The notes under the pieces were generated by a model. It did no database searches and was not told the origin of the DNA. It saw only the letters and a list, made by a program, of their open reading frames with translations. DNA of 64,000 bases. Source: Lachnospiraceae bacterium (GTDB taxonomy: Bacteria; Bacillota; Clostridia; Lachnospirales; Lachnospiraceae). The translations under genes were made by a program, and so were the position numbers. Shown here piece by piece: positions 2,897 through 64,000 of the stretch; the stretch's first letter is position 1, and every line of letters starts with the position of its first letter. The stretch is taken from contig JAJPXQ010000030.1 in assembly GCA_021205385.1 (NCBI GenBank), positions 1-64,000 of the forward strand, in the 5' to 3' direction.

Positions 2897-5014
2897 ATGG
2901 CCGGAAGAGAATATCCGTTGGAGAGAACCAGGAATATCGGGATTATGGCTCATATCGACGCGGGCAAGACCACGCTGACCGAGCGTATCCTGTACTATAC
3001 TGGCGTGAATTATAAGATCGGAGAGACTCACGAGGGCACTGCTACCATGGACTGGATGGAGCAGGAGCAGGAGAGAGGTATCACGATTACTTCCGCCGCT
3101 ACGACCTGTCACTGGACGCTGCAGGAACACTGCAAGGCAAAACCGGGCGCGCTCGAGCATCGTATCAATATCATCGACACCCCGGGCCATGTGGACTTTA
3201 CCGTAGAGGTGGAGCGTTCCCTTCGTGTGCTGGACGGCGCTGTGGGCGTCTTCTGTGCGAAGGGCGGTGTCGAGCCTCAGTCTGAGAATGTATGGCGTCA
3301 GGCTGACACCTACAATGTACCGCGTATGGCTTTCATCAATAAGATGGACATCCTCGGTGCGGATTTCTACAATGCCGTGGACATGATCAGGACCCGTCTG
3401 GGCAAGAACGCGATCTGTCTGCAGCTGCCGATCGGCAAGGAAGACGATTTCAAGGGAATCATCGACCTGTTCGAGATGAAGGCTTATATTTACAATGACG
3501 ACAAGGGCGAGGACATCTCCATCGTCGATATCCCGGAGGATATGGTGGATGATGCGGAGCTGTATCACACCGAACTTGTGGAGAAGATCTGTGAGCTGGA
3601 CGATGACCTGATGGCGCAGTATCTGGATGATGTGGAGCCTTCTGTAGAAGACATGAAGGCGGTCCTGAGAAAGGCCACCTGTGAGTGCACCGCCGTTCCG
3701 GTATGCTGCGGCAGCGCGTACCGCAACAAGGGCGTGCAGAAGCTCCTGGACGCAATCCTTGAGTTCATGCCGGCGCCGACGGACATCCCGTCGATCAAGG
3801 GCACGGATATGGATGGCAATGAGATCGAGAGACATTCCTCCGATGAGGAGCCTTTCGCAGCTCTGGCGTTCAAGATCATGACCGATCCTTTTGTCGGCAA
3901 GCTGGCGTTCTTCCGTGTATATTCCGGAACGATGAACTCCGGTTCCTATGTATACAACTCGACGAAGCAGAAGAAGGAGCGCGTAGGCCGTATTCTTCAG
4001 ATGCATGCGAACAAGAGACAGGAGCTCGACAAGGTGTACTCCGGCGATATTGCCGCTGCGGTCGGATTCAAGCTGACCACGACCGGCGACACGATCTGTG
4101 ATGAGCAGCATCCGGTCATTCTGGAGTCCATGGAGTTCCCGGAGCCGGTTATCGAGCTCGCGATCGAGCCGAAGACCAAGGCCGGTCAGGGCAAGCTGGG
4201 CGAGTCTCTCGCGAAGCTGGCCGAGGAGGATCCGACCTTCCGCGCGCACACCAATCCGGAGACCGGACAGACGATCATCGCCGGTATGGGCGAGCTCCAT
4301 CTGGAGATCATCGTAGACCGTCTGCTGCGTGAGTTCAAGGTTGAGGCCAATGTTGGTGCGCCGCAGGTTGCCTACAAGGAGACCATCACGAAGCCGGCGG
4401 ATGTGGACAGCAAGTACGCAAAGCAGTCCGGCGGACGTGGACAGTATGGTCACTGCAAGGTCAAGTTTGAGCCGATGGATGCGAACGCGGAGGAGACTTA
4501 TACCTTCGAGTCGACGGTTGTCGGCGGTGCGATCCCGAAGGAGTATATCCAGCCTGTGAGCGAGGGTATCGAGGAGGCTATGAAGTCCGGCATTCTCGGC
4601 GGCTTCCCGGTGGTCGGCATCCATGCGAACGTCTACGACGGTTCCTACCACGAGGTCGACTCTTCTGAGATGGCATTCCACATTGCGGGTTCTCTGGCAT
4701 TCAAGGAAGCGATGAAGCAGGCTGCTCCGATTCTGCTCGAACCGATCATGAAGGTCGAGGTCACGACTCCCGAGGATTACATGGGAGACGTTATCGGCGA
4801 CATCAACTCCCGCCGCGGACACATCGAAGGCATGGAGGATATCGGCGGAGGCAAGATGATCAAGGGCTATGTGCCGCTGGCTGAGATGTTCGGCTATGCG
4901 ACTGATCTGCGTTCGAAGACGCAGGGCCGCGGCAACTATTCGATGTTCTTTGAAAAGTATGAGCCGGTGCCGAAGAGCGTGCAGGAGAAGGTTCTGGCCG
5001 CAAAGGCGAAATAG
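2897..5014 (+). CDS. fusA: Elongation factor G
   Basis: EF-G is the GTPase that drives ribosomal translocation and, with RRF, ribosome recycling. The 705-residue protein has the G1 motif AHIDAGKTT (18-26), the switch I motif [13 protein letters not shown] near residue 92 and NKMD near 147, followed by domains II-V at normal length. The C-terminal [12 protein letters not shown] segment is typical. An AAGGAGGA site at 2879-2886 precedes the ATG. It lies 32 bp after rpsG, so it is cotranscribed. Two other EF-G-superfamily GTPases occur in this window (a TetM-like fusion and TypA), and this one is clearly the housekeeping factor. Confidence 0.98.
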
Positions 5015-10215: not shown

Positions 10216-12357
10216 TTGAAAAATTTTGTTAGAGAATATACACCGAAATATCCCCTGTCCGTGCGGCCGATGGCCGAGATCAAGGGTTACCCGGTAAGGC
10301 CCGGCGATTTTACATCCTACGGGGCGATTGCGACGCCGGTAGGCGTCAATTTCACGATACATACGCACTACGGGACAAGCTGCGAGCTGCTGCTCTACCA
10401 CCGAGAGGAGGAGGAGCCCTATGTCGTGCTGCCGTTTCCGGAGGAATATAAGATCGGGGACGTCTACTCGATGCTTGTATTTGGCCTCGATATTGAGGAC
10501 TTTGAGTATGCTTACCGTATCGACGGCCCTTATGATCCGAAGCAGGGACTTTTGTTCGACCGGAACCGGGTGCTGCTCGATCCTTACGCGAAGGCGGTGG
10601 CTGGCCAGCATATCTGGGGGGAGCACAAGAACGGAAATTATCGCGCGCGCGTCGTGCGGGACACCTTTGACTGGGGCGATATGCCGCAGTCGAAGCAGAA
10701 TCTCTGCGATCTCGTGATTTATGAGCTGCATGTACGCGGTTTTACCCGTCATGCATCTTCGGGAGTGCAGCATCCGGGCACCTTCGCGGGGTTGATGGAA
10801 AAAATCCCTTATCTGAAGGAGCTGGGCATTAATGCGGTGGAGCTGATGCCGATCTTTGAGTTCGATGAAGAGATCAATGCGCGCGAAGTAAATGGAGAAC
10901 GTCTGCTGGAGTACTGGGGCTACAATACGGTTGCTTTCTTTGCACCGAACTCGGCCTATGTCTCTGAACCGGGGCGCAACCGGGAAGGCTATGAGCTGAA
11001 GAAACTGATCAAGGCGCTTCATGACAATGGGATAGAGGTCATTCTGGATGTTGTATTTAACCATACGGCGGAAGGAAACGAGCATGGGCCGAGCTTCAGC
11101 TTTAAGGGAATTGACAACTCTATCTACTACATGCTGACGCCGGATGGGAACTATTATAATTTCAGCGGCTGCGGCAACACGCTGAACTGCAACAACCCGG
11201 TAGTGCAGCAGATGATCCTTGAATGTCTGCGCTACTGGACGATCTCGTACCGCGTGGACGGTTTTCGTTTCGACCTGGCCAGTATTCTGGGGAGAAACAA
11301 GGATGGTTCTCCGCTCGCACAGCCGCCGCTTCTGCGGAATCTGGCCTATGATCCGATTCTGAGCCGGGTGAAGCTGATTGCGGAGGCCTGGGACGCCGGA
11401 GGGATGTACCAGGTCGGCAGCTTTCCGGCCAGCCGCCGCTGGGCGGAGTGGAACGGGAGATATCGCGACGCGCTCAGAGGCTATCTGAAAGGCGACGCCT
11501 GGCAGTCCTGGGATGCGGCCTACAGCATCTGCGGCTCGCCCGACCTCTATGGCGGGGGAACGGGGGAGCTGGACAATTATCGTGGTGATTATGACGGACT
11601 GAATTCCTGCGTGAATTTTATCACCTGTCATGACGGCTTCACGATGTATGATCTGTATGCTTATAATGAGAAGCACAACGAGGTCAACGGCTGGGGCAAT
11701 ACGGACGGCCATAATGACAATCGAAGCTGGAACTGCGGCGTGGAGGGAGAGACCGACGATCCCGAAGTGCTGAAGCTCCGCTTCCGCATGATCCGCAACG
11801 CCTGTGCGCTTCTGATGTGCAGCCGGGGGACGCCGATGTTCCTGGCGGGCGACGAGTTCGGCAACACGCAGTATGGAAACAACAACTGTTACTGTCAGGA
11901 CAACGAGTTTTCCTGGCTGGACTGGAGTATGCTGGAGAAAAACAGGGATCTGTTTGCGTTCTTCAAGTATATGATCGCGTTCCGCCGCGGGCATCGCGTG
12001 ATACGGGAGCGCCTGCCGCGGGCTGTGTGCGGGATGGATGAGATGCACATCCATCCGCCGGATGGAGAGCTCGTGGATATTCCGCGGGACGCAAAGATCT
12101 TTTCGGCGAGCTTTGCCGGTTACGACGCGCAGAAGGGAAAGGACGATCTGGTGTATGTGACAGTAAACACGCACTGGGAATCCATCCCGATCACGCTTCC
12201 GCGCGTGTGGGGACGTGTAGGATGGCATCTGTGTGTCAATACGAACGGGGATGAAAAGGGCAGATACTGCTATCCGGAAGAGGAAGCGCCGTTCATTGAA
12301 CATGAATTTATCATGCCGTCCCGGTCTGTGGCAGTTTTTGTGGGGACACATTACTGA
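10216..12357 (+). CDS. glgX: Glycogen debranching enzyme, GlgX/isoamylase type
   Basis: A GH13 enzyme that hydrolyses alpha-1,6 branches in glycogen or limit dextrin. The 713-residue protein has an N-terminal CBM48-like domain (about 20-140), then the TIM barrel with DVVFNHTAEG, the nucleophile aspartate 353 in DGFRFDLAS, the acid glutamate 390 in AEAWDAGG, and FITCHDGFTMYDL. The start is chosen as TTG at 10216 because GGAGGGG lies 5 bp upstream and a promoter lies between this codon and the earlier in-frame ATG. It is a single transcription unit; no other glycogen genes are nearby. Confidence 0.92.
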   Translation: MKNFVREYTPKYPLSVRPMAEIKGYPVRPGDFTSYGAIATPVGVNFTIHTHYGTSCELLLYHREEEEPYVVLPFPEEYKIGDVYSMLVFGLDIEDFEYAYRIDGPYDPKQGLLFDRNRVLLDPYAKAVAGQHIWGEHKNGNYRARVVRDTFDWGDMPQSKQNLCDLVIYELHVRGFTRHASSGVQHPGTFAGLMEKIPYLKELGINAVELMPIFEFDEEINAREVNGERLLEYWGYNTVAFFAPNSAYVSEPGRNREGYELKKLIKALHDNGIEVILDVVFNHTAEGNEHGPSFSFKGIDNSIYYMLTPDGNYYNFSGCGNTLNCNNPVVQQMILECLRYWTISYRVDGFRFDLASILGRNKDGSPLAQPPLLRNLAYDPILSRVKLIAEAWDAGGMYQVGSFPASRRWAEWNGRYRDALRGYLKGDAWQSWDAAYSICGSPDLYGGGTGELDNYRGDYDGLNSCVNFITCHDGFTMYDLYAYNEKHNEVNGWGNTDGHNDNRSWNCGVEGETDDPEVLKLRFRMIRNACALLMCSRGTPMFLAGDEFGNTQYGNNNCYCQDNEFSWLDWSMLEKNRDLFAFFKYMIAFRRGHRVIRERLPRAVCGMDEMHIHPPDGELVDIPRDAKIFSASFAGYDAQKGKDDLVYVTVNTHWESIPITLPRVWGRVGWHLCVNTNGDEKGRYCYPEEEAPFIEHEFIMPSRSVAVFVGTHY

Positions 12358-56802: not shown

Positions 56803-57642
56803 ATGGCTGAGAAATCATGCAGCAGCAAGGGCTGTACCAAAGAGAGCTGCGAGGGCTGTCCGAGCGCCGCGAAGCCGCAGAGCATGCTCGCGGAGCCAAA
56901 TAAGGCATCTCATGTAAAGAAAGTGATCGCTGTCGTGAGCGGAAAGGGCGGCGTCGGAAAATCATTGATCACCGCTTCGCTTGCCAATCTTATGAAAAAG
57001 CAGGGTTATGCGGTGGGTATCCTCGACGCAGATATCACCGGTCCTTCGATTCCGAAGATGTACGGGATTCACGGCCCGGCGGAGGCAGTCGGGGAAGACA
57101 TTCTGCCCGTTGTGACAGAGAACGGCATCCCGGTCATGTCGATCAACCTTCTGCTGCCGGACGAGGAGTCGCCGGTCATCTGGCGCGGACCGATTCTCGC
57201 AAATATGGTCAAGCAGTTCTGGAGCAATGTGATCTGGGGCGATCTCGATTATCTCTTTGTCGATATGCCGCCGGGAACCGGCGACGTACCGCTGACGGTG
57301 TTCCAGTCCCTGCCGGTTGACGGCATCATCGTCGTGACCTCTCCGCAGGATCTGGTCAGCCTGATCGTGAAGAAAGCGCTGAACATGGCGAAGAGCATGC
57401 ATATTCCGGTGCTCGGCCTGGTGGAGAATTACAGCTATGTGGTCTGCCCGGACTGCGGGAAAGAAATGCATATTTTCGGGGAGAGCGGCATTGAAAAGCT
57501 GGCGGAAGAAGTTGGACTGCCGGTGCTCGGACAGGTGCCGATTGAGCCGAAATTCGCCGAGTGCGCAAACGGAGACTTTGCAGGGGCGGAGAATGCGTAC
57601 CTGACGGCGGCGGAGGATCTGCTGATTTCCGTGAGGGGCTGA
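56803..57642 (+). CDS. Mrp/NBP35-type iron-sulfur carrier ATPase
   Basis: A P-loop ATPase that carries Fe-S clusters to target proteins. The 279-residue protein has a cysteine-rich N-terminus (CSSKGCTKESCEGC), the deviant Walker A SGKGGVGKSLIT, LDADITGPSIPKMYG, DMPPGTGDVPLTV, and the CxxC pair in CPDCGKEMHIFG. AAAGAGGAG precedes the ATG. A strong terminator follows, then the left repeat of the invertible segment. Confidence 0.93.
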   Translation: MAEKSCSSKGCTKESCEGCPSAAKPQSMLAEPNKASHVKKVIAVVSGKGGVGKSLITASLANLMKKQGYAVGILDADITGPSIPKMYGIHGPAEAVGEDILPVVTENGIPVMSINLLLPDEESPVIWRGPILANMVKQFWSNVIWGDLDYLFVDMPPGTGDVPLTVFQSLPVDGIIVVTSPQDLVSLIVKKALNMAKSMHIPVLGLVENYSYVVCPDCGKEMHIFGESGIEKLAEEVGLPVLGQVPIEPKFAECANGDFAGAENAYLTAAEDLLISVRG

Positions 57643-57665: not shown

Positions 57666-57697
57666 AGCCGGGGGCAGAGATGCTCCCGGCTTTTTTT
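57666..57697 (+). terminator. Terminator of the Mrp-type gene
   Basis: AGCCGGG pairs with CCCGGCT around a loop, followed by TTTTTTT. Confidence 0.85.
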
Positions 57698-57705
57698 GCA
57701 TTGCA

Positions 57706-57730
57706 GCTCTCTAAGTAAGCCACTAAGAGA
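57706..57730 (+). repeat. Left inverted repeat (IRL) of the invertible segment
   Basis: The 25-bp sequence matches the reverse complement of 59187-59211 at 24 positions, with the inner 20 bp perfect. It has partial dyad symmetry (CTCTCTAAG/CTAAGAGAG around 7 bp), as expected for a tyrosine recombinase crossover site. Confidence 0.85.
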
Positions 57731-57786
57731 GCCATTGAAATGGCGGAACGATCGTTTTCGGTCGCCGCAGCGACATCTTTTTTTCT

Positions 57787-57815
57787 ATTATAGTGCATTC
57801 GTTTGCATTATTCAA
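57787..57815 (-). promoter_or_regulatory. Outward promoter inside the invertible segment
   Basis: On the minus strand TTGAAT (57815-57810), a 17-bp spacer and TATAAT (57792-57787). It is oriented leftward, out through IRL toward the Mrp-type gene. After inversion it would read rightward into the pilus genes. No equally good promoter lies between IRR and the pilin start. Confidence 0.75.
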
Positions 57816-57895
57816 GGGATAATGCGGAGAAAAAACGGCGGAAACGGAAAAAACAGTTCAGAAAAAACGGCAAAATTCCGCAAATGTGAAAGCTC

Positions 57896-57915
57896 AGTGG
57901 TCAGAATCGTGGTCA
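57896..57915 (+). repeat. 20-bp direct repeat, copy 1 (possible recombinase arm site)
   Basis: AGTGGTCAGAATCGTGGTCA is repeated exactly at 59120-59139. Each copy holds two TGGTCA units 12 bp apart. They bracket the recombinase coding region and could be binding sites for its N-terminal arm domain. Confidence 0.6.
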
Positions 57916-57958
57916 GAAAATCCGGATGAATATTTTAGAAAGTGAGGTCATATAATTT

Positions 57959-59161
57959 ATGGGAAGGCGTGGAGAGAACATTCGGAAACGCGAGGATGGA
58001 AGATGGGAGGCCCGGGTCATTCAGGGCGCTCCCAGGGAAGGCAGGACAAACTATAAATATTTTTATGGAAAATCCTACCGGGACGTGAAGCGAAAGAAGA
58101 CGGAGTACCTCCTTCTGCTTGAAAGTGAGGGCGCAGGGTCTGCGGACATGCCCTCTCCAGGCAGAATGGCAGGTGGCATTGCGGAGGAGCTGCGTTTTCG
58201 TCAGGTTGTGGAGGAATGGCTTGCCTCAAAGCAGACGATCGTGAAGGCGTCCACCCTCGCCTGTTACACCACGATGGCGGAGGCCTACATTCTGCCGAAG
58301 CTGGGGGATCTTACCCCTGCGCAGATTGATGCCTCTGTTCTGGCCGGATTTCTGGCGGAGCAGAAGGAACATGGCCGGCACAAAAACGGCGGCATGCTCT
58401 CCGGCAAGACGCTTGCTGATCTGCGCATGATCCTGATGCAGATTCTGAGCTTTGCGAAGGCGCGGGGAATGATCCGGGCGGTGCCGGACTGTCCGTCCGT
58501 CAATGTCCGCCCCGCGGCTCCCTGCGTCCTGACAAAGCGGGAGCAGGAGCTGCTCGAACAGGCCGTACTCAGCGAGGACAATCCTTTTTCTCTTGGCATT
58601 CTTCTCTCCCTCTACGGAGGTCTGCGTATCGGAGAAGTATGCGCTCTGAGATGGGGCGATTTTGACAGAGGGAACGGCACTGTCCACATATCCAGGACGG
58701 TATCCCGGATTGCGGATCTGGACGCCTCGACTCCTTCCCGGACGAAGCTGGTCATCGACACGCCCAAGACGGACTGTTCGATTCGCACCGTGCCGCTTCC
58801 GGCGCCGGTGTTCCGGTATCTGATGCAGCGCAGCCAGTGCGGGGAGAACTATGTCGTGACCGGCTCCGCGAAATACATGGAGCCGAGGGTCTGCCGGGAA
58901 CGATATAAACGCCTGCTGCGCCGCGCCGGAGTTCCCGGCCATACTTACCATTCGCTTCGGCACACCTTCGCAACCCGCTGTGTGGAAAATGGCGTGGACA
59001 TGAAATCGCTCAGCGAGATCATGGGCCATTCCGACGTGAAGATCACCATGCAGCGCTACATCCATCCGTCTATGGACGCAAAAAGAGAACAGATCGATAA
59101 ACTGCCATGTTTTGACGTGAGTGGTCAGAATCGTGGTCATCAAAACACTTCAGATGCCTGA
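57959..59161 (+). CDS. Tyrosine recombinase (phage-type integrase) within the invertible segment
   Basis: A 400-residue site-specific recombinase. The N-terminus (GRRGENIRKREDGRWEARVI) is an AP2-like arm-binding domain; a SAM-like core-binding domain follows (about 75-185). The catalytic domain has R223 (GGLRIGE), H331 and R334 (HSLRHTF), H357 (MGHSDVK) and nucleophile Y367 (MQRYIH). All are present, so it should be active. The ATG at 57959 follows GAAAGTGAGG at a slightly long spacing. It is flanked by inverted repeats and next to a sortase-pilus operon; no other phage genes are near, which favours a DNA-inversion role over a prophage. Confidence 0.93.
   Translation: MGRRGENIRKREDGRWEARVIQGAPREGRTNYKYFYGKSYRDVKRKKTEYLLLLESEGAGSADMPSPGRMAGGIAEELRFRQVVEEWLASKQTIVKASTLACYTTMAEAYILPKLGDLTPAQIDASVLAGFLAEQKEHGRHKNGGMLSGKTLADLRMILMQILSFAKARGMIRAVPDCPSVNVRPAAPCVLTKREQELLEQAVLSEDNPFSLGILLSLYGGLRIGEVCALRWGDFDRGNGTVHISRTVSRIADLDASTPSRTKLVIDTPKTDCSIRTVPLPAPVFRYLMQRSQCGENYVVTGSAKYMEPRVCRERYKRLLRRAGVPGHTYHSLRHTFATRCVENGVDMKSLSEIMGHSDVKITMQRYIHPSMDAKREQIDKLPCFDVSGQNRGHQNTSDA
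59120..59139 (+). repeat. 20-bp direct repeat, copy 2 (possible recombinase arm site)
   Basis: Identical to 57896-57915. It lies inside the last codons of the recombinase gene (encoding SGQNRGH). Confidence 0.6.
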
Positions 59162-59177
59162 TTTTCAGGGCTTTTTT
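59156..59177 (+). terminator. Terminator of the recombinase gene
   Basis: GCCTGA pairs with TCAGGGC (one bulge) around TTT, followed by TTTTTT. It overlaps the stop codon and precedes the right inverted repeat, blocking readthrough into the pilus operon in this orientation. Confidence 0.65.
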
Positions 59178-59186
59178 CCAGCATTT

Positions 59187-59211
59187 TCTCTTAGTGGCTT
59201 ACTTAGGGAGC
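59187..59211 (-). repeat. Right inverted repeat (IRR) of the invertible segment
   Basis: Reverse complement of IRL with one mismatch in 25 bp. It lies 132 bp before the pilin start codon. Confidence 0.85.
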
Positions 59212-59342
59212 AGCTGTGTATGGTCATCGCCATGCACAGTACTCTCCGGGTGTGGTACAGACTCCGGCCTTGATAGTATTACATGGATGGAGCATTTTTA
59301 TACTGGCGAGGATAGTAAAAAGTAGCACAAGGAGATCAAACT

Positions 59343-60962
59343 ATGTGTACGAGAAAAAATTTTGTCGCCTTTCTGCTGGCACTGCTTCTGACCATGGCGT
59401 CAGGGGTTACGGTTTTCGCAGCAAGTGGCTCTTCGAGTATTGTCATCAACTTTGTTGCCTCGGAGAGCCACACGTTCACGGCATATCAGATCTTCAGCGG
59501 GGAACTGAGCGGCGATGAGCAGAGTGGTTACGAGCTGACTAAAATCGCCTGGGGCGACGGTGTGACGACGAACGAGGACGCTGCACTAAAAGCCGCGCAG
59601 GCCGTGACGGTTGATGGTACGACACCTTTTGCAAACTGCACTTCAGCGGCGGAGGTCGCAGCGGTACTTGATGACTATGAAGATGACACTGCAGTGGTAA
59701 AAGCATTCGCAGAGGCGATGGAAGCGGTGAAGGGAACCGTCTCCGGGTCAACTTCGGCCGGGACAGCCGATGGCAGCGGCACCTATACCTACACCATCTC
59801 CGGCGTGGCTGCGGGCTACTATCTGGTCACGGACTCAACCACAGCCAGCACCAGTGACGCCGTCTCAGCCTACATTCTCTATGTGGCGGGGGATACTGCG
59901 CACATCAGATTCAAAAATGAAGTCCCGACTCCGACAAAGATTATCGTCGACTCTGCGTATGGTAATGATTATGGCACTTCCGCGGATGCGGACGGTTATG
60001 TGACATTTGAGATCACCGGAACCGTGCCCGGCGCGGACACCATGAGCAATTATGATACCTATACCTATATCTTCCACGATACGTTGTCTGCCAATCTGGA
60101 ATATGCAGACAGCCTTACGGTCAGCGCGAGTACAAAAGGAACTCTTGCAGAGAACACGGATTATACGGTGGATCAGAGCGGGCAGACGCTGACCATCACC
60201 ATGGTCAATGCAAAGGAGACTCTTGCAGGGCAGACCATCACGGTACGTTATCAGGCGAAGCTGAAAGCCAGTGCGAGTGCAGGCATAAAAGAGACCAATA
60301 AGGTCTACATCGAGTATTCGAACGATCCGAATGGAAGCGGTACAGGTGACACTACGGAGCTGACTGTGTATGTCTACACTTTCAAAATCCTTGTCAATAA
60401 GGTGGACGAGAAGGAGAAAGCGCTCGAAGGCGCCGGTTTCACGCTCTATAAAGCAGTAGAGGCAGATATTACAGCGTTCGAGGATGGGGAGACTTATTAT
60501 ACGCTGACAGGCGGGAGCCTGACTGAGGTGGCCTCCGGAAGTACATATGACAGTGAGAGTACCTACTATATTTACAGTCAGGTGGGAAGTGAGGTCACGG
60601 GAGTGGGAGTGACAACTTTCACATTCGAGGACCTGGGCGAAGGATATTATAGGCTGGCAGAGACCACGGTACCGCAGGGCTACAAGCAGGCGGATGACAT
60701 TGAATTTCAGATTACAGCGACGTATGGCGAAGATGGACAGATCAGTGATCTGACGGAGACGAGTGAGTATTTCACAGTCGATAATTCGGCAGGAACGCTG
60801 ACCACAGCAATCATGAATGTGGCCGGCGCCACACTGCCTTCCTCCGGCGGCATGGGTACTACCATCTTCTATATTGTCGGCGGAATACTGGCTGCCGCAG
60901 CGCTGCTTCTGCTGATTGTGAGAAAGTGCAGGCGGGACAGCCTTGCCCGGAAGAACAGATGA
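59343..60962 (+). CDS. Isopeptide-forming major pilin with LPSSG sorting signal
   Basis: A 539-residue secreted backbone pilin. It has a signal peptide (FVAFLLALLLTMASGVTVFA), an N-terminal domain (about 30-195), a fimbrial isopeptide-formation D2 domain (about 200-345; DGYVTFEITGTVPGADTMSN), a SpaA-like domain (about 350-480; ILVNKVDEKEKALEGAGFTL, ending in the E-box-like GYYRLAETTVPQGY), and the sorting signal LPSSG (498-502) with a TM helix and basic tail. Sortase should polymerise it into pili and attach it to peptidoglycan. AAGGAGA precedes the ATG. It heads the pilus operon and overlaps the sortase gene by 4 bp. Confidence 0.9.
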   Translation: MCTRKNFVAFLLALLLTMASGVTVFAASGSSSIVINFVASESHTFTAYQIFSGELSGDEQSGYELTKIAWGDGVTTNEDAALKAAQAVTVDGTTPFANCTSAAEVAAVLDDYEDDTAVVKAFAEAMEAVKGTVSGSTSAGTADGSGTYTYTISGVAAGYYLVTDSTTASTSDAVSAYILYVAGDTAHIRFKNEVPTPTKIIVDSAYGNDYGTSADADGYVTFEITGTVPGADTMSNYDTYTYIFHDTLSANLEYADSLTVSASTKGTLAENTDYTVDQSGQTLTITMVNAKETLAGQTITVRYQAKLKASASAGIKETNKVYIEYSNDPNGSGTGDTTELTVYVYTFKILVNKVDEKEKALEGAGFTLYKAVEADITAFEDGETYYTLTGGSLTEVASGSTYDSESTYYIYSQVGSEVTGVGVTTFTFEDLGEGYYRLAETTVPQGYKQADDIEFQITATYGEDGQISDLTETSEYFTVDNSAGTLTTAIMNVAGATLPSSGGMGTTIFYIVGGILAAAALLLLIVRKCRRDSLARKNR

Positions 60963-61840
60963 TGAAGAGCAGACAGGACTCTGCAGCGGCGCGGAGACGG
61001 GACCGCATATGGACAATCGTTCTGGTTGGCGTGTTCCTTGTAGGTCTGCTGATCCTGCTGTATCCGACGGTCAGCAACTGGTGGAATGCGCGCGTGCAGA
61101 CCCGGGCAGTGGCCGCTTACGATGCGGCGGCGACAGAGCTGACTGACTCAGCTTACGCTGAATACCTTGCAGCGGCTGAGGCATATAATGAAAGGCTTGC
61201 TGAGATTGGCTCCGCAGAGGCGATCGTTTCTCCGGAGCTGGTGGAAGAAGGCTATGAGGAACTGCTGGATATCTCTGATACGGGCGTCATGGGCTATGTC
61301 ACCATCGCGAAAATCAATGTGCAGCTCCCCATTTACCATGGCACGGACTCCGCGGTGCTGCAGGTCGGAGCAGGACATCTGGAAGGAAGCAGCCTGCCAG
61401 TGGGCGGCGAGAGCACTCACAGCGTGATATCGGCGCATCGCGGCCTGCCCAGTTCGCTTCTGTTCACGAATCTGGATAAGCTGGAGCTGGGCGATACCTT
61501 CACCGTCACGGTGTTGAACCGCGTGCTCACCTACCAGGTGGACCGGATTTCCGTCGTACTGCCTGATGAACTCGAAAATCTGTACATAGAAGAAGAAAAA
61601 GATTACTGCACACTCATGACGTGTACCCCTTATGGCATCAACAGTCATCGCCTGCTGGTGCGGGGTGTGCGGGTCGGAGATTCGGAAGAAGCGGTTACCC
61701 GGGTATCTGCAAATGAAAAACAGATGGACCTGATCCTCGTCGCATCGGCCGCCGCTGTGCCGTTGTTGCTGCTGGTTCTGGTCGGGCTGTTGCTGAATAC
61801 GCGAAGAAGGAAAAAACGGGAGGCAAATCATGATGAATAA
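60959..61840 (+). CDS. Class C (pilin) sortase
   Basis: A membrane transpeptidase that joins pilin subunits. The 293-residue protein has an N-terminal TM segment (IWTIVLVGVFLVGLLILLYP), an extended helical region, the catalytic H160 (SAHRGLP), C222 (TLMTCTPYG) and R231 (SHRLLVRG), and a C-terminal TM segment (LILVASAAAVPLLLLVLVGL), the layout of class C sortases. The start is an ATG pair at 60959, overlapping the pilin stop. It overlaps the next gene by 11 bp. Confidence 0.93.
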   Translation: MMKSRQDSAAARRRDRIWTIVLVGVFLVGLLILLYPTVSNWWNARVQTRAVAAYDAAATELTDSAYAEYLAAAEAYNERLAEIGSAEAIVSPELVEEGYEELLDISDTGVMGYVTIAKINVQLPIYHGTDSAVLQVGAGHLEGSSLPVGGESTHSVISAHRGLPSSLLFTNLDKLELGDTFTVTVLNRVLTYQVDRISVVLPDELENLYIEEEKDYCTLMTCTPYGINSHRLLVRGVRVGDSEEAVTRVSANEKQMDLILVASAAAVPLLLLVLVGLLLNTRRRKKREANHDE

Positions 61841-62582
61841 AATAAAAAGGGCATTTCGCTGCGGAATAAGCCTTCTGTCTGTGCTGGCGCTGCTGTCCGG
61901 CCTGGGTCTGAGTGTCTCTGCCGCCGCTGATGGAGCCTCGCTGGATCTTACGCAGACAGGCTCCGTCACGCTGGAACTTGCCGACGGTGACGGAAATACG
62001 GTTTCCGGCGGAAAGATCACCATTTATCAGGTGGCGGAGCTCTATTTTAATGATGGAGACATGGCATATCGCTATACCGACGATTTTGACGGCTGCAGCG
62101 CGACGCTGGATGTCACGGATACTTCCCTGGCGGCGACGCTGGCGGCTTATGTCAGGAACAAAGGAATCAGCGGGACAACGTCCTCCGTGAGTTCGAAAGG
62201 CAAGGTCACATTCAGCGGTCTGTCCCTGGGGCTCTATCTGCTGGTGCAGACCACAGCGTCCGAAAACTATGAGACGATCAGTCCTTTTGTAGTCACGGTG
62301 CCATATGAGAGCGACGGCGCGTGGGTCTATGAGGTGGACGCAAGCCCGAAAGTAGGAACCGTGACGCGGAAAGTGCCGGATGAACCGGATAAGCCACCCA
62401 GACCGAAAAAGAAAACATCGGAATCATCCAGTACAACCACGGTCAGCGTGACCTACGCGTCTACGCTTCCGCAGACCGGGCAGCTGAACTGGCCGGTACC
62501 GGTTCTGGCGTGCTGCGGCATGCTGCTCTTTGCTCTGGGCTGGGCTATGCGGATGTCCGGCAGGAAAGAGCAGGACGTATGA
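61830..62582 (+). CDS. LPQTG-anchored surface protein, probable minor pilin
   Basis: A 250-residue secreted protein with a signal peptide (CGISLLSVLALLSGLGLSVS), one pilin-like beta domain (SVTLELADGDGNTVSGGKIT; SLGLYLLVQTTASENYETIS), a proline/lysine/serine stalk, LPQTG (213-217), a hydrophobic helix and a short charged tail. It is likely a minor or basal pilin. GGGAGG precedes the ATG. It overlaps the genes on both sides. Confidence 0.87.
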   Translation: MMNKIKRAFRCGISLLSVLALLSGLGLSVSAAADGASLDLTQTGSVTLELADGDGNTVSGGKITIYQVAELYFNDGDMAYRYTDDFDGCSATLDVTDTSLAATLAAYVRNKGISGTTSSVSSKGKVTFSGLSLGLYLLVQTTASENYETISPFVVTVPYESDGAWVYEVDASPKVGTVTRKVPDEPDKPPRPKKKTSESSSTTTVSVTYASTLPQTGQLNWPVPVLACCGMLLFALGWAMRMSGRKEQDV

Positions 62583-63187
62583 AACAGAAGATCAGCATCT
62601 TCTGTATGCTCCTGGGCGTCCTGCTGCTGAGCGGGGCCATTGCGCTGCTAGCCTATAACATATGGGATAACATAAGGGCCGGCGACTCCGCGGATCTGGT
62701 GCGGCAGAGTCTGGAAGAAGCCGCAGATACGCAGGATGGCGCGGCGGATTCGCTGACAGATGGAAGCGACAGGGATGGTACCGAAATGGATACCGTGGAA
62801 ATCGACGGCTATGCGTACATCGGAACGCTGACGATTCCCGCGCTGAACCTGGAGCTGCCGGTGATGGCAGAGTGGAGCTATGCGGGACTGAAGATTGCGC
62901 CGGGGCGTTATGCGGGATCCGTCTGGTCAGATGATCTGGTGATCTGCGGACACAACTATACCCGGCATTTTGGCAATCTGAAATTCCTGCATTCCGGGGA
63001 TATTCTGTATTTTACAGACGTGAATGGAAATGAGTTCAGTTACGAGGTCGTGGCGAGTCTCATTCTTCAGCCTGAGGATGTGGAAGAGATGCAAAGCGAT
63101 GAATCGGAAGAATGGGATCTGACCCTGTTCACCTGTACCATCGGAGGAAGAAAGAGAGTAACCGTCCGCTGCAGCCGGACGGAATAA
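62579..63187 (+). CDS. Second sortase of the pilus operon
   Basis: A 202-residue sortase with an N-terminal TM segment (IFCMLLGVLLLSGAIALLAY), an acidic linker, and the catalytic triad H125 (ICGHNYTRHFG), C186 (LFTCTIGG) and R197 (VTVRCSR). It lacks the C-terminal TM segment of class C enzymes, so it more likely anchors the pilus to the wall or handles a specific substrate; its class is uncertain. The start overlaps the previous stop (ATGA). Confidence 0.87.
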   Translation: MKQKISIFCMLLGVLLLSGAIALLAYNIWDNIRAGDSADLVRQSLEEAADTQDGAADSLTDGSDRDGTEMDTVEIDGYAYIGTLTIPALNLELPVMAEWSYAGLKIAPGRYAGSVWSDDLVICGHNYTRHFGNLKFLHSGDILYFTDVNGNEFSYEVVASLILQPEDVEEMQSDESEEWDLTLFTCTIGGRKRVTVRCSRTE

Positions 63188-63229: not shown

Positions 63230-64000
63230 ATGAGAGACAGAAAGAATAACACGAAGAGACACATGATGACACGCGTTCTGGCGTGGATACTTGTGTTTGC
63301 ACTCATGATGTCTTCGTCGAGCGCGACGGCTTTTGCGGAGCTGGGCGATTCCGATTCATCCGGAACCGGAACGGAGGCAGGGTATACAGAGGATGGGGAC
63401 ACATCCGGAACCAATGAGGAACAGAACGCGCAGAGCGACGATGACGAAAGCAGTGGAGCGGAAGACGATGCCGCGCAGAGCGATGAGACCGAAAGTGCCG
63501 ATGACGGGAACAGCGGCTCCGGGACCGGGGATGAGGAAGGTGCAGATGCCGGTAATGGCGAGACCGGCGAAACCGAAGCAGATGATGAGGATTCAGCGGC
63601 CGGAAATGGTGAGAACGACAGTTCCGGAACCGAGGAGGCCGGGGACGACGCATCGGAAGACGAGGATACACAGGATGAGTCGACAGAGACCGCGGTCCTG
63701 GAATCGAGCGTGGTGCAGACCCTGTATCAGGATGAGGAAGGAAATTATTTTATTGCTATTGAGATGACCGTCCAGGAGACCGCTTCTGTGGCGGCCGATG
63801 GTGTTTCTGTGAAGATGATTCTGCCAGCGGGCCTTTCCGTGACAGAGGAAAGCCGGACAGCGCTCACAGAGGACGGGAATGTCACCGTCATCGACTCTGT
63901 GACGGACGAGGTTGCGGCGGAGCTGGAGGAAGCCGCAGAGGACGAAGAATACGAGATGCTCCTGGCGGAGCTTGCCGATTGCACGGACGCGGAGCTGGCT
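63230..64000 (+). CDS. Secreted acidic surface protein, probable pilus tip adhesin (cut by the window edge)
   Basis: Open from ATG 63230 to the window end (257 codons). It has a signal peptide (LAWILVFALMMSSSSATAFA) and then about 130 residues of low-complexity D/E/S/G/T sequence, followed by a folded region (VVQTLYQDEEGNYFIAIEMT; MILPAGLSVTEESRTALTED). AGGGAGG lies 8 bp before the ATG. It is the fifth gene of the pilus operon. Large secreted proteins in such operons are often tip adhesins; the sorting signal, if any, lies beyond the edge. Confidence 0.75.
   Translation, partial: MRDRKNNTKRHMMTRVLAWILVFALMMSSSSATAFAELGDSDSSGTGTEAGYTEDGDTSGTNEEQNAQSDDDESSGAEDDAAQSDETESADDGNSGSGTGDEEGADAGNGETGETEADDEDSAAGNGENDSSGTEEAGDDASEDEDTQDESTETAVLESSVVQTLYQDEEGNYFIAIEMTVQETASVAADGVSVKMILPAGLSVTEESRTALTEDGNVTVIDSVTDEVAAELEEAAEDEEYEMLLAELADCTDAELA

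What the first reader, a model, noticed from the sequence alone, without database searches (positions are those of the whole stretch)
57706..63187. Self-encoded invertible switch predicted to control a sortase-pilus operon
Seen: 25-bp inverted repeats (24/25) bound a 1.5-kb segment with an intact tyrosine recombinase. A TTGAAT-17-TATAAT promoter inside the left repeat points outward. The operon right of the other repeat encodes pilin, class C sortase, LPQTG protein, second sortase and surface protein, and has no good fixed promoter. Flipping would aim the promoter at the pilus genes. This parallels Hin in Salmonella, where the recombinase lies in the switching segment, but here with a phage-type tyrosine integrase. 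The reference appears to be in the OFF state.
Basis: partly seen in the sequence, partly recalled or inferred. Interest (0 to 1): 0.95.

Follow-up and report, generated by a model that had tools for sequence, protein, structure and literature searches.

The report
Self-flipping promoter cassette before pilus operon
A 1.5-kb piece of this bacterial chromosome is bounded by mirror-image repeats and carries its own recombinase gene and an outward-pointing promoter-like sequence; it is predicted to flip back and forth and so likely switches the neighbouring pilus genes on and off, and dozens of related repeat-flanked cassettes sit beside other genes, mostly in Clostridia.

Summary
Inverted repeats (28 bp, 26/28; 25-bp core 24/25) bound 1,456 bp holding an intact tyrosine recombinase and a TTGAAT-17-TATAAT site pointing out through the left repeat. 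To the right lies a SpaH/EbpB-type pilin and class C sortase operon. Comparison supports inversion. In a sister species (G002) two contigs stop exactly at the inner edges of the two repeats, as expected if both orientations were in the sequenced population. In the recombinase's clade 65 of 85 full-context loci are repeat-flanked (0 of 25 distant viral integrases). An outward promoter with at least 10/12 matches occurs in 64 of 74 flanked cassettes (6.6 expected). Related operons occur with the cassette in opposite orientations. Neighbours include pilus, capsule, type VII secretion, polysaccharide and kinase/phosphatase genes. What seems new is the class: a Tn1549-like recombinase inside its own promoter inverton, widespread in Clostridia. 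Inverting fimbrial promoters, and recombinases inside invertible segments, are known: a new variant of a known kind. No flipped molecule or pilus transcript has been seen, 20 of 85 relatives lack repeats, and a weak fixed promoter candidate lies upstream of the pilin.

The parts
57703..57730 (+). left inverted repeat (25-bp core 57706-57730)
59187..59214 (-). right inverted repeat (25-bp core 59187-59211)
57731..59186 (.). predicted invertible segment, 1,456 bp
   Evidence: inversion inferred
57787..57815 (-). outward promoter-like site TTGAAT-17-TATAAT
   Evidence: recurrence in the family
57959..59161 (+). tyrosine recombinase, 400 aa
57897..57915 (+). first copy of GTGGTCAGAATCGTGGTCA, proposed arm-type site or operator
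   Evidence: family repeats; role inferred
59121..59139 (+). second copy of GTGGTCAGAATCGTGGTCA, 47 bp inside the right repeat and within the 3' end of the recombinase gene
   Evidence: role inferred
59157..59169 (+). weak terminator-like hairpin at the end of the recombinase gene
   Evidence: consensus match only
57666..57691 (+). terminator-like hairpin after mrp, left of the cassette
56803..57642 (+). mrp (NUBPL/ParA-type P-loop ATPase), left neighbour
59278..59304 (+). weak fixed promoter candidate ATTACA-15-TATACT (evidence against a pure switch)
59343..60962 (+). major pilin, SpaH/EbpB type, 539 aa
60962..61840 (+). class C sortase, 292 aa
61830..62582 (+). LPQTG-anchored SpaA-domain protein, 250 aa
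62579..63187 (+). second sortase, 202 aa
63230..64000 (+). start of a giant surface protein that runs past the window

Best explanation
The segment is a self-contained promoter-inversion cassette, bounded by 28-bp inverted repeats and carrying an intact tyrosine recombinase gene and an outward promoter-like site, and it is predicted to flip and thereby likely switch the sortase-pilus operon on and off. Inferred steps: the recombinase binds core sites in the two repeats and, through a predicted N-terminal arm-binding domain, the internal GGTCA repeats; it exchanges strands and inverts the 1,456 bp; in the present orientation the promoter fires leftward (OFF), and after inversion it would fire through the right repeat and a leader of about 200 nt into the pilin gene (ON). 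Because recombinase gene, arm-like repeats and promoter all lie inside the segment, both orientations should offer nearly the same substrate, so the reaction should be reversible. Shown by sequence comparison: the same arrangement (recombinase between repeats, outward promoter) recurs in a family of cassettes beside many unrelated genes.
For: Repeats, recombinase and promoter in place. In sister species G002 (mrp 99%, LPQTG protein 97% identical) one contig ends at the last inner base of the left repeat and another begins at the first inner base of the right repeat, the cassette itself not being in the MAG: the expected fork if both orientations were present. Of 85 relatives with 33% identity or more and enough flank, 65 are repeat-flanked; of 25 more distant viral integrases none; mismatched flanks reach that score in 0.8% of 1000 trials. 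Outward promoter with at least 10/12 matches in 64 of 74 flanked cassettes, 6.6 expected from shuffles, 13 on the inward strand. Cassette toward a co-directional operon in 27 and away in 13 of 74, 20 between divergent genes. Related operons with the cassette reversed: L058 and L064, four genes at 45-77% identity; also L044/L047, L071/L113 and others. In G008 a related pilus operon follows mrp without the cassette. Direct GGTCA-type repeats on both sides of the recombinase gene in 26 of 74 (1.3 expected from shuffles; 2 in inverted sense).
Against: No flipped molecule or transcript was seen. The G002 contig ends could come from missing coverage. The reversed pairs are different species, so separate insertions are possible, and same-orientation pairs are also common, including G007 beside the same pilus locus. 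20 of 85 relatives lack detectable repeats. Contig ends within 200 bp of a repeat are only mildly enriched, 8 of 59 against 1.7 expected, and only one (L109, 2 bp) lies at the edge. A weak fixed promoter candidate precedes the pilin. The window's promoter has 4 of 6 in the -35 box. The GGTCA repeats are not found in most members at that score (48 of 74 below it), and flanks from different loci reach 12 at the 95th percentile because loci share the motif.
Confidence: 0.78

Rival explanations
1. The segment inverts, but the pilus operon is driven mainly by its own fixed promoter, so inversion only modulates it, or mainly affects the left side by antisense transcription into mrp.
For: A 9/12 candidate with a 15-nt spacer lies at 59278-59304, and the same letters stand in G002. 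The hairpin after mrp has its T run on the plus strand only, so leftward transcription may not stop there. In G008 a related operon works from this place without any cassette.
Against: The candidate fails the usual spacer rule, whereas an outward promoter recurs in 64 of 74 cassettes.
Confidence: 0.13
2. A cassette that once inverted but is now fixed: repeats and gene persist without switching.
For: The window and G007 have the same orientation.
Against: The recombinase is open with its conserved residues, the repeats match 24/25 here and 24/24 in G007, and the G002 contigs break at both inner edges.
Confidence: 0.06
3. An ordinary small integrative element (Tn916-like) whose ends happen to be inverted repeats; excision rather than inversion is its reaction.
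For: The nearest solved relative is the Tn1549 integrase, solved with circular-intermediate DNA, and the cassette is missing from the G002 MAG.
Against: Sites in inverted orientation give inversion, not deletion (established for tyrosine recombinases). Excision would leave one joined contig in G002, not two contigs each ending in a repeat. My annotation of this 1.5-kb segment found no other gene (one search lists only shorter overlapping frames on the other strand).
Confidence: 0.03

Closest known systems
Hin switch of Salmonella (recalled; named in passages of PMC5903667)
   Same: Recombinase gene lies inside the invertible segment and the segment carries a promoter for a surface structure.
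   Different: Hin is a serine recombinase (recalled); here a tyrosine recombinase of the integrase type with arm-like repeats.
Fimbrial switches fimS (E. coli) and the Providencia stuartii segment (PMC5903667, section 13 read)
   Same: Promoter inversion before fimbrial genes; the Providencia segment (844 bp) encloses a recombinase gene.
   Different: Gram-negative fimbriae; fimS holds only a promoter. Relation of the Providencia recombinase to this family was not tested.
Clostridial invertons, group 139 with invertase group 35 (PMC11892184, passages and section 8 read)
   Same: Tyrosine recombinases linked to invertons in Clostridia.
   Different: There the recombinases are reported near invertons, mostly in positions that the inverton promoter cannot drive; the example given is about 250 bp long. 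Here the recombinase is inside. Whether the proteins are the same group was not tested.
RecV switches of C. difficile (PMC5903667 passages; others as listings)
   Same: Tyrosine recombinase inverting segments before surface and motility genes in a clostridium.
   Different: RecV acts on several sites elsewhere in the genome; here each cassette has its own recombinase.
Tn916/Tn1549 integrases (PMC8138268 passages)
   Same: Best sequence and fold match; arm-binding type of tyrosine recombinase.
   Different: Those integrases move conjugative elements by excision and insertion; here the only gene is the recombinase and the sites are inverted.
Bifidobacterium breve sortase pili (PMC9187656, abstract start seen)
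   Same: On/off variation of sortase pili.
   Different: Replication slippage, not DNA inversion.

Membership tests
Invertible promoter (inverton) | inverted repeats bounding a segment | tested here: met
Invertible promoter (inverton) | promoter inside that points outward | tested here: met
   by consensus only; family recurrence; no transcript
Invertible promoter (inverton) | both orientations found in one population | tested here: inconclusive
   contig ends at both inner repeat edges in G002 fit it; no reads available
Invertible promoter (inverton) | expression of the neighbour changes with orientation | not testable with these tools
   needs RNA
Tyrosine recombinase | integrase domain with conserved R, H-x-x-R, H, Y | tested here: met
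Arm-binding tyrosine recombinase (Tn916/Tn1549-like) | N-terminal arm-binding domain | tested here: inconclusive
   predicted three strands and a helix at 8-59 (pLDDT about 64-86 there); the first 60 residues matched no solved chain; the Tn1549 structures lack this domain (aa 82-397)
Tn916-type conjugative transposon | conjugation and excision genes within the element | tested here: not met
   the segment holds only the recombinase
Serine invertase (Hin/Gin) | serine recombinase | tested here: not met
   Pfam matches are phage integrase type only
Sortase-dependent pilus operon | major pilin plus class C sortase | tested here: met
   both above the curated cut-offs, the pilin narrowly

The most novel reading that the evidence does not exclude
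A plug-in phase-variation module: a Tn1549-like integrase that has become a self-sufficient flipping promoter cassette of about 1.4-1.5 kb, gained or lost as a unit, and placed in front of pilus, capsule, type VII secretion, polysaccharide and kinase operons across Clostridia, a plasmid included. Between divergent operons it would act as an either/or selector.
Probability: 0.55. Interest if true: 0.82.

Novelty: new variant of a known kind. Interest (0 to 1): 0.7.

Why it matters
If right, Clostridia carry a common, self-contained on/off switch that can be recognised from sequence alone: a recombinase inside its own repeats with an outward promoter. That would let one predict which surface structures of uncultured bacteria vary within a clone, and it asks how one type of cassette came to stand before so many unrelated operons. 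It would also give a sortase pilus that varies by DNA inversion, for which three searches of the held library showed me no report.

Tried and rejected
Strain-level flips: the genome collections hold one genome per species and no metagenome scan was allowed, so flipped assemblies of the window's own species could not be looked for. Fixed promoter: only a weak candidate. Function of neighbours: first genes reading away from the cassettes (92 of 93 taken; L108:1-430 left out because it runs to the contig end) and 44 control genes were scanned. The 92 are mixed (HTH_3 8, response regulator 5, FHA 5, LytTR 4, group 1 glycosyltransferase 3); no enrichment test was made, so I do not claim that surface genes prevail. 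That list also included L032 and L038, whose scores were below 15. Contig ends as general proof of flipping: weak. The N-terminal 60 residues against solved structures: nothing.

Rows dropped: six loci (L046, L048, L128, L136, L155, L158) gave no repeat measurement and are in no count; 17 of 102 relatives lacked enough flank; L156 is among the 74 flanked cassettes but not among the 102. Gene calls are from a simple codon-usage script of mine and some are wrong near contig ends. Of seven phage-record hits four were fetched.

Literature: ten searches (one search returned none). Passages were read in PMC5903667, PMC11892184 and PMC8138268 and one section each of the first two; all other papers were seen only as listings with abstract starts. 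The library lacks most subscription papers, so absence from print is not established.

Full report
WHAT IS THERE. Two arms, 57703-57730 and 59187-59214, are 26/28 complementary and bound 1,456 bp. A 22-nt core pattern with up to three mismatches occurs nowhere else in the 64 kb. Inside is one gene of note, a 400-aa tyrosine recombinase (57959-59161), whose R, H-x-x-R, H and Y positions are invariant in the 13 sequences aligned. On the minus strand between left repeat and gene lies TTGAAT-17-TATAAT (57815-57787), pointing out through the left repeat. A 19-bp sequence, GTGGTCAGAATCGTGGTCA, occurs exactly twice, in direct orientation, before the start and inside the 3' end of the gene. On the left, mrp ends before a terminator-like hairpin at 57666-57691. 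On the right follow a SpaH/EbpB-type pilin, a class C sortase, an LPQTG protein, a second sortase and the start of a giant surface protein.

THE SAME LOCUS ELSEWHERE. Of 17 genomes of the genus, the own one included, 10 have a recombinase of this family at E <= 1e-60, the own genome three (the other two at 61% and 39% identity). G007 has the counterpart (80%): mrp, repeat, recombinase, repeat, sortase and LPQTG genes in the same orientation, but no pilin hit in that stretch. G002 has mrp and the pilus operon on two contigs: one ends with the last inner base of the left repeat, the other begins with the first inner base of the right repeat (flanks 96% and 93.5% identical to the window). The cassette was not found in that MAG. 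A single orientation gives no reason to stop at just these bases; two orientations make an assembly graph fork exactly there. This is my strongest sign of live inversion, but it is indirect and missing coverage could mimic it. In G008 mrp is followed by a related pilus operon with no cassette, so the cassette seems to come or go as a unit.

A FAMILY OF SUCH CASSETTES. Together with genus and viral loci I measured repeats across each recombinase gene. Of 102 loci at 33% identity or more, 85 had enough flank and 65 of those are repeat-flanked; of 25 more distant viral integrases none is. Flanks taken from different loci score as high in 0.8% of 1000 trials. Of the 20 without repeats some gain a match with wider flanks (L032, 24/24), but for most of them none was found. 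Repeat sequences differ between loci; by eye many look like two facing half sites. The set is not fully independent: 12 pairs exceed 80% identity, five of them among viral loci. In a quick tree the 23 outgroup rows fall on one side of a branch (support 99), and repeat-bearing and repeat-less members are intermixed on the other. A plasmid record of Vescimonas fastidiosa MM35 (source Homo sapiens) carries a copy with a 29/29 repeat, and the four phage-catalogue fragments fetched each carry one (a second, partial copy in L204 has no repeat).

THE PROMOTER RECURS. In the 74 repeat-flanked cassettes the best outward site has at least 10 of 12 matches in 64 (6.6 expected from shuffles of the same DNA) and at least 11 in 33; the inward strand gives 13 and 1. 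At 9 of 12 the contrast is weaker: 70 outward, 34 inward, 29 expected. Eight cassettes score 8-9 outward and two (L081, L083) have no match by these rules. In most, the -10 box lies about 20-65 bp inside the left repeat.

ORIENTATIONS. By my gene calls, 27 of 74 cassettes have the recombinase pointing toward and 13 away from a single co-directional neighbour set, 20 lie between divergent genes, 3 between convergent genes, and 11 lack a gene call on one side. Related genes with the cassette reversed include L058 and L064 (four genes, 45-77%: FHA protein, PP2C, kinase and one more), L010/L028 against L040/L042/L099 (first gene, 38-44%; in L028 a weak AP2 match below the cut-off), L071 and L113, and L044 and L047. 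Same-orientation pairs are also common in that call. All are different species, so separate insertion is possible. By the promoter's direction the window and G007 would both be OFF.

NEIGHBOURS. Besides this pilus: a SpaA-domain protein and sortase (L075), capsule genes CpsB and LytR-CpsA-Psr (L028), FtsK/FHA and WXG100 type VII secretion proteins (L031, with a related gene beside L011 in the own genome), a glycosyltransferase (L035), signal peptidases (L071, L113). Others are regulators, helicases, another integrase (L030) or unknown.

MECHANISM (INFERRED). The predicted recombinase fold, with an N-terminal domain of three strands and a helix, best matches the Tn1549 integrase, whose solved part lacks that domain (mean pLDDT 79, pTM 0.55). 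Direct repeats on both sides of the gene, mostly built on a GTCA core, reach score 11 in 26 of 74 cassettes (1.3 expected from shuffles; 2 in inverted sense); in 22 of the 26 the 3' copy lies 40-64 bp from the right repeat. Flanks of different loci also share the motif (95th percentile 12), as expected of a family site. I read these as arm-type binding sites; the 5' copy may also be an operator. Since gene, promoter and these repeats move together, each flip should recreate nearly the same substrate.

AGAINST. No flipped molecule and no transcript has been seen. A weak fixed candidate promoter lies at 59278-59304. Twenty of 85 relatives lack repeats. Contig ends near repeats in other species are only mildly enriched (8 of 59 within 200 bp, 1.7 expected; only L109 at the edge).

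NOVELTY. Inverting fimbrial promoters, and recombinases inside invertible segments, are in print, a Providencia fimbrial example included, and clostridial invertons near tyrosine recombinases have been listed. My searches of the held library showed no paper on a sortase pilus under DNA inversion or on this class of recombinase inside its own promoter inverton, but that library is partial. I rate it a new variant of a known kind.

Noticed in passing
L032, L036, L038 (same genus): Cassettes lying between divergent gene clusters that look like surface polysaccharide genes, so that either orientation might serve one side (only L036's first gene was checked in Pfam; L038 has only a weak repeat).
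   Followed up: partly
L010, L028, L040, L042, L099: A related small protein (weak AP2 match in L028) is the first gene beside the cassette in five loci, perhaps a regulator that travels with it.
   Followed up: partly
window 63230-64000 and on (L014 8192-19901): The last gene of the window is part of a giant surface protein, at least 3,900 codons and still open at the end of the fetched stretch.
   Followed up: no
G000:C147 44648-45349 (L200): The own genome has a second pilus operon (sortase 64%, LPQTG protein 51% identical); its contig ends just before the pilin, and no core-like repeat was found in the stretch.
   Followed up: partly
L099 3054-3126 / 4551-4623 and L109 9750-9805 / 11209-11264: Repeats of 73 and 56 bp without mismatch, each arm seeming to hold two core-like sites.
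   Followed up: no
L033 7419-8753: A gene with a Cas12f1-like/TnpB-type zinc domain stands directly after the right repeat of a cassette.
   Followed up: no
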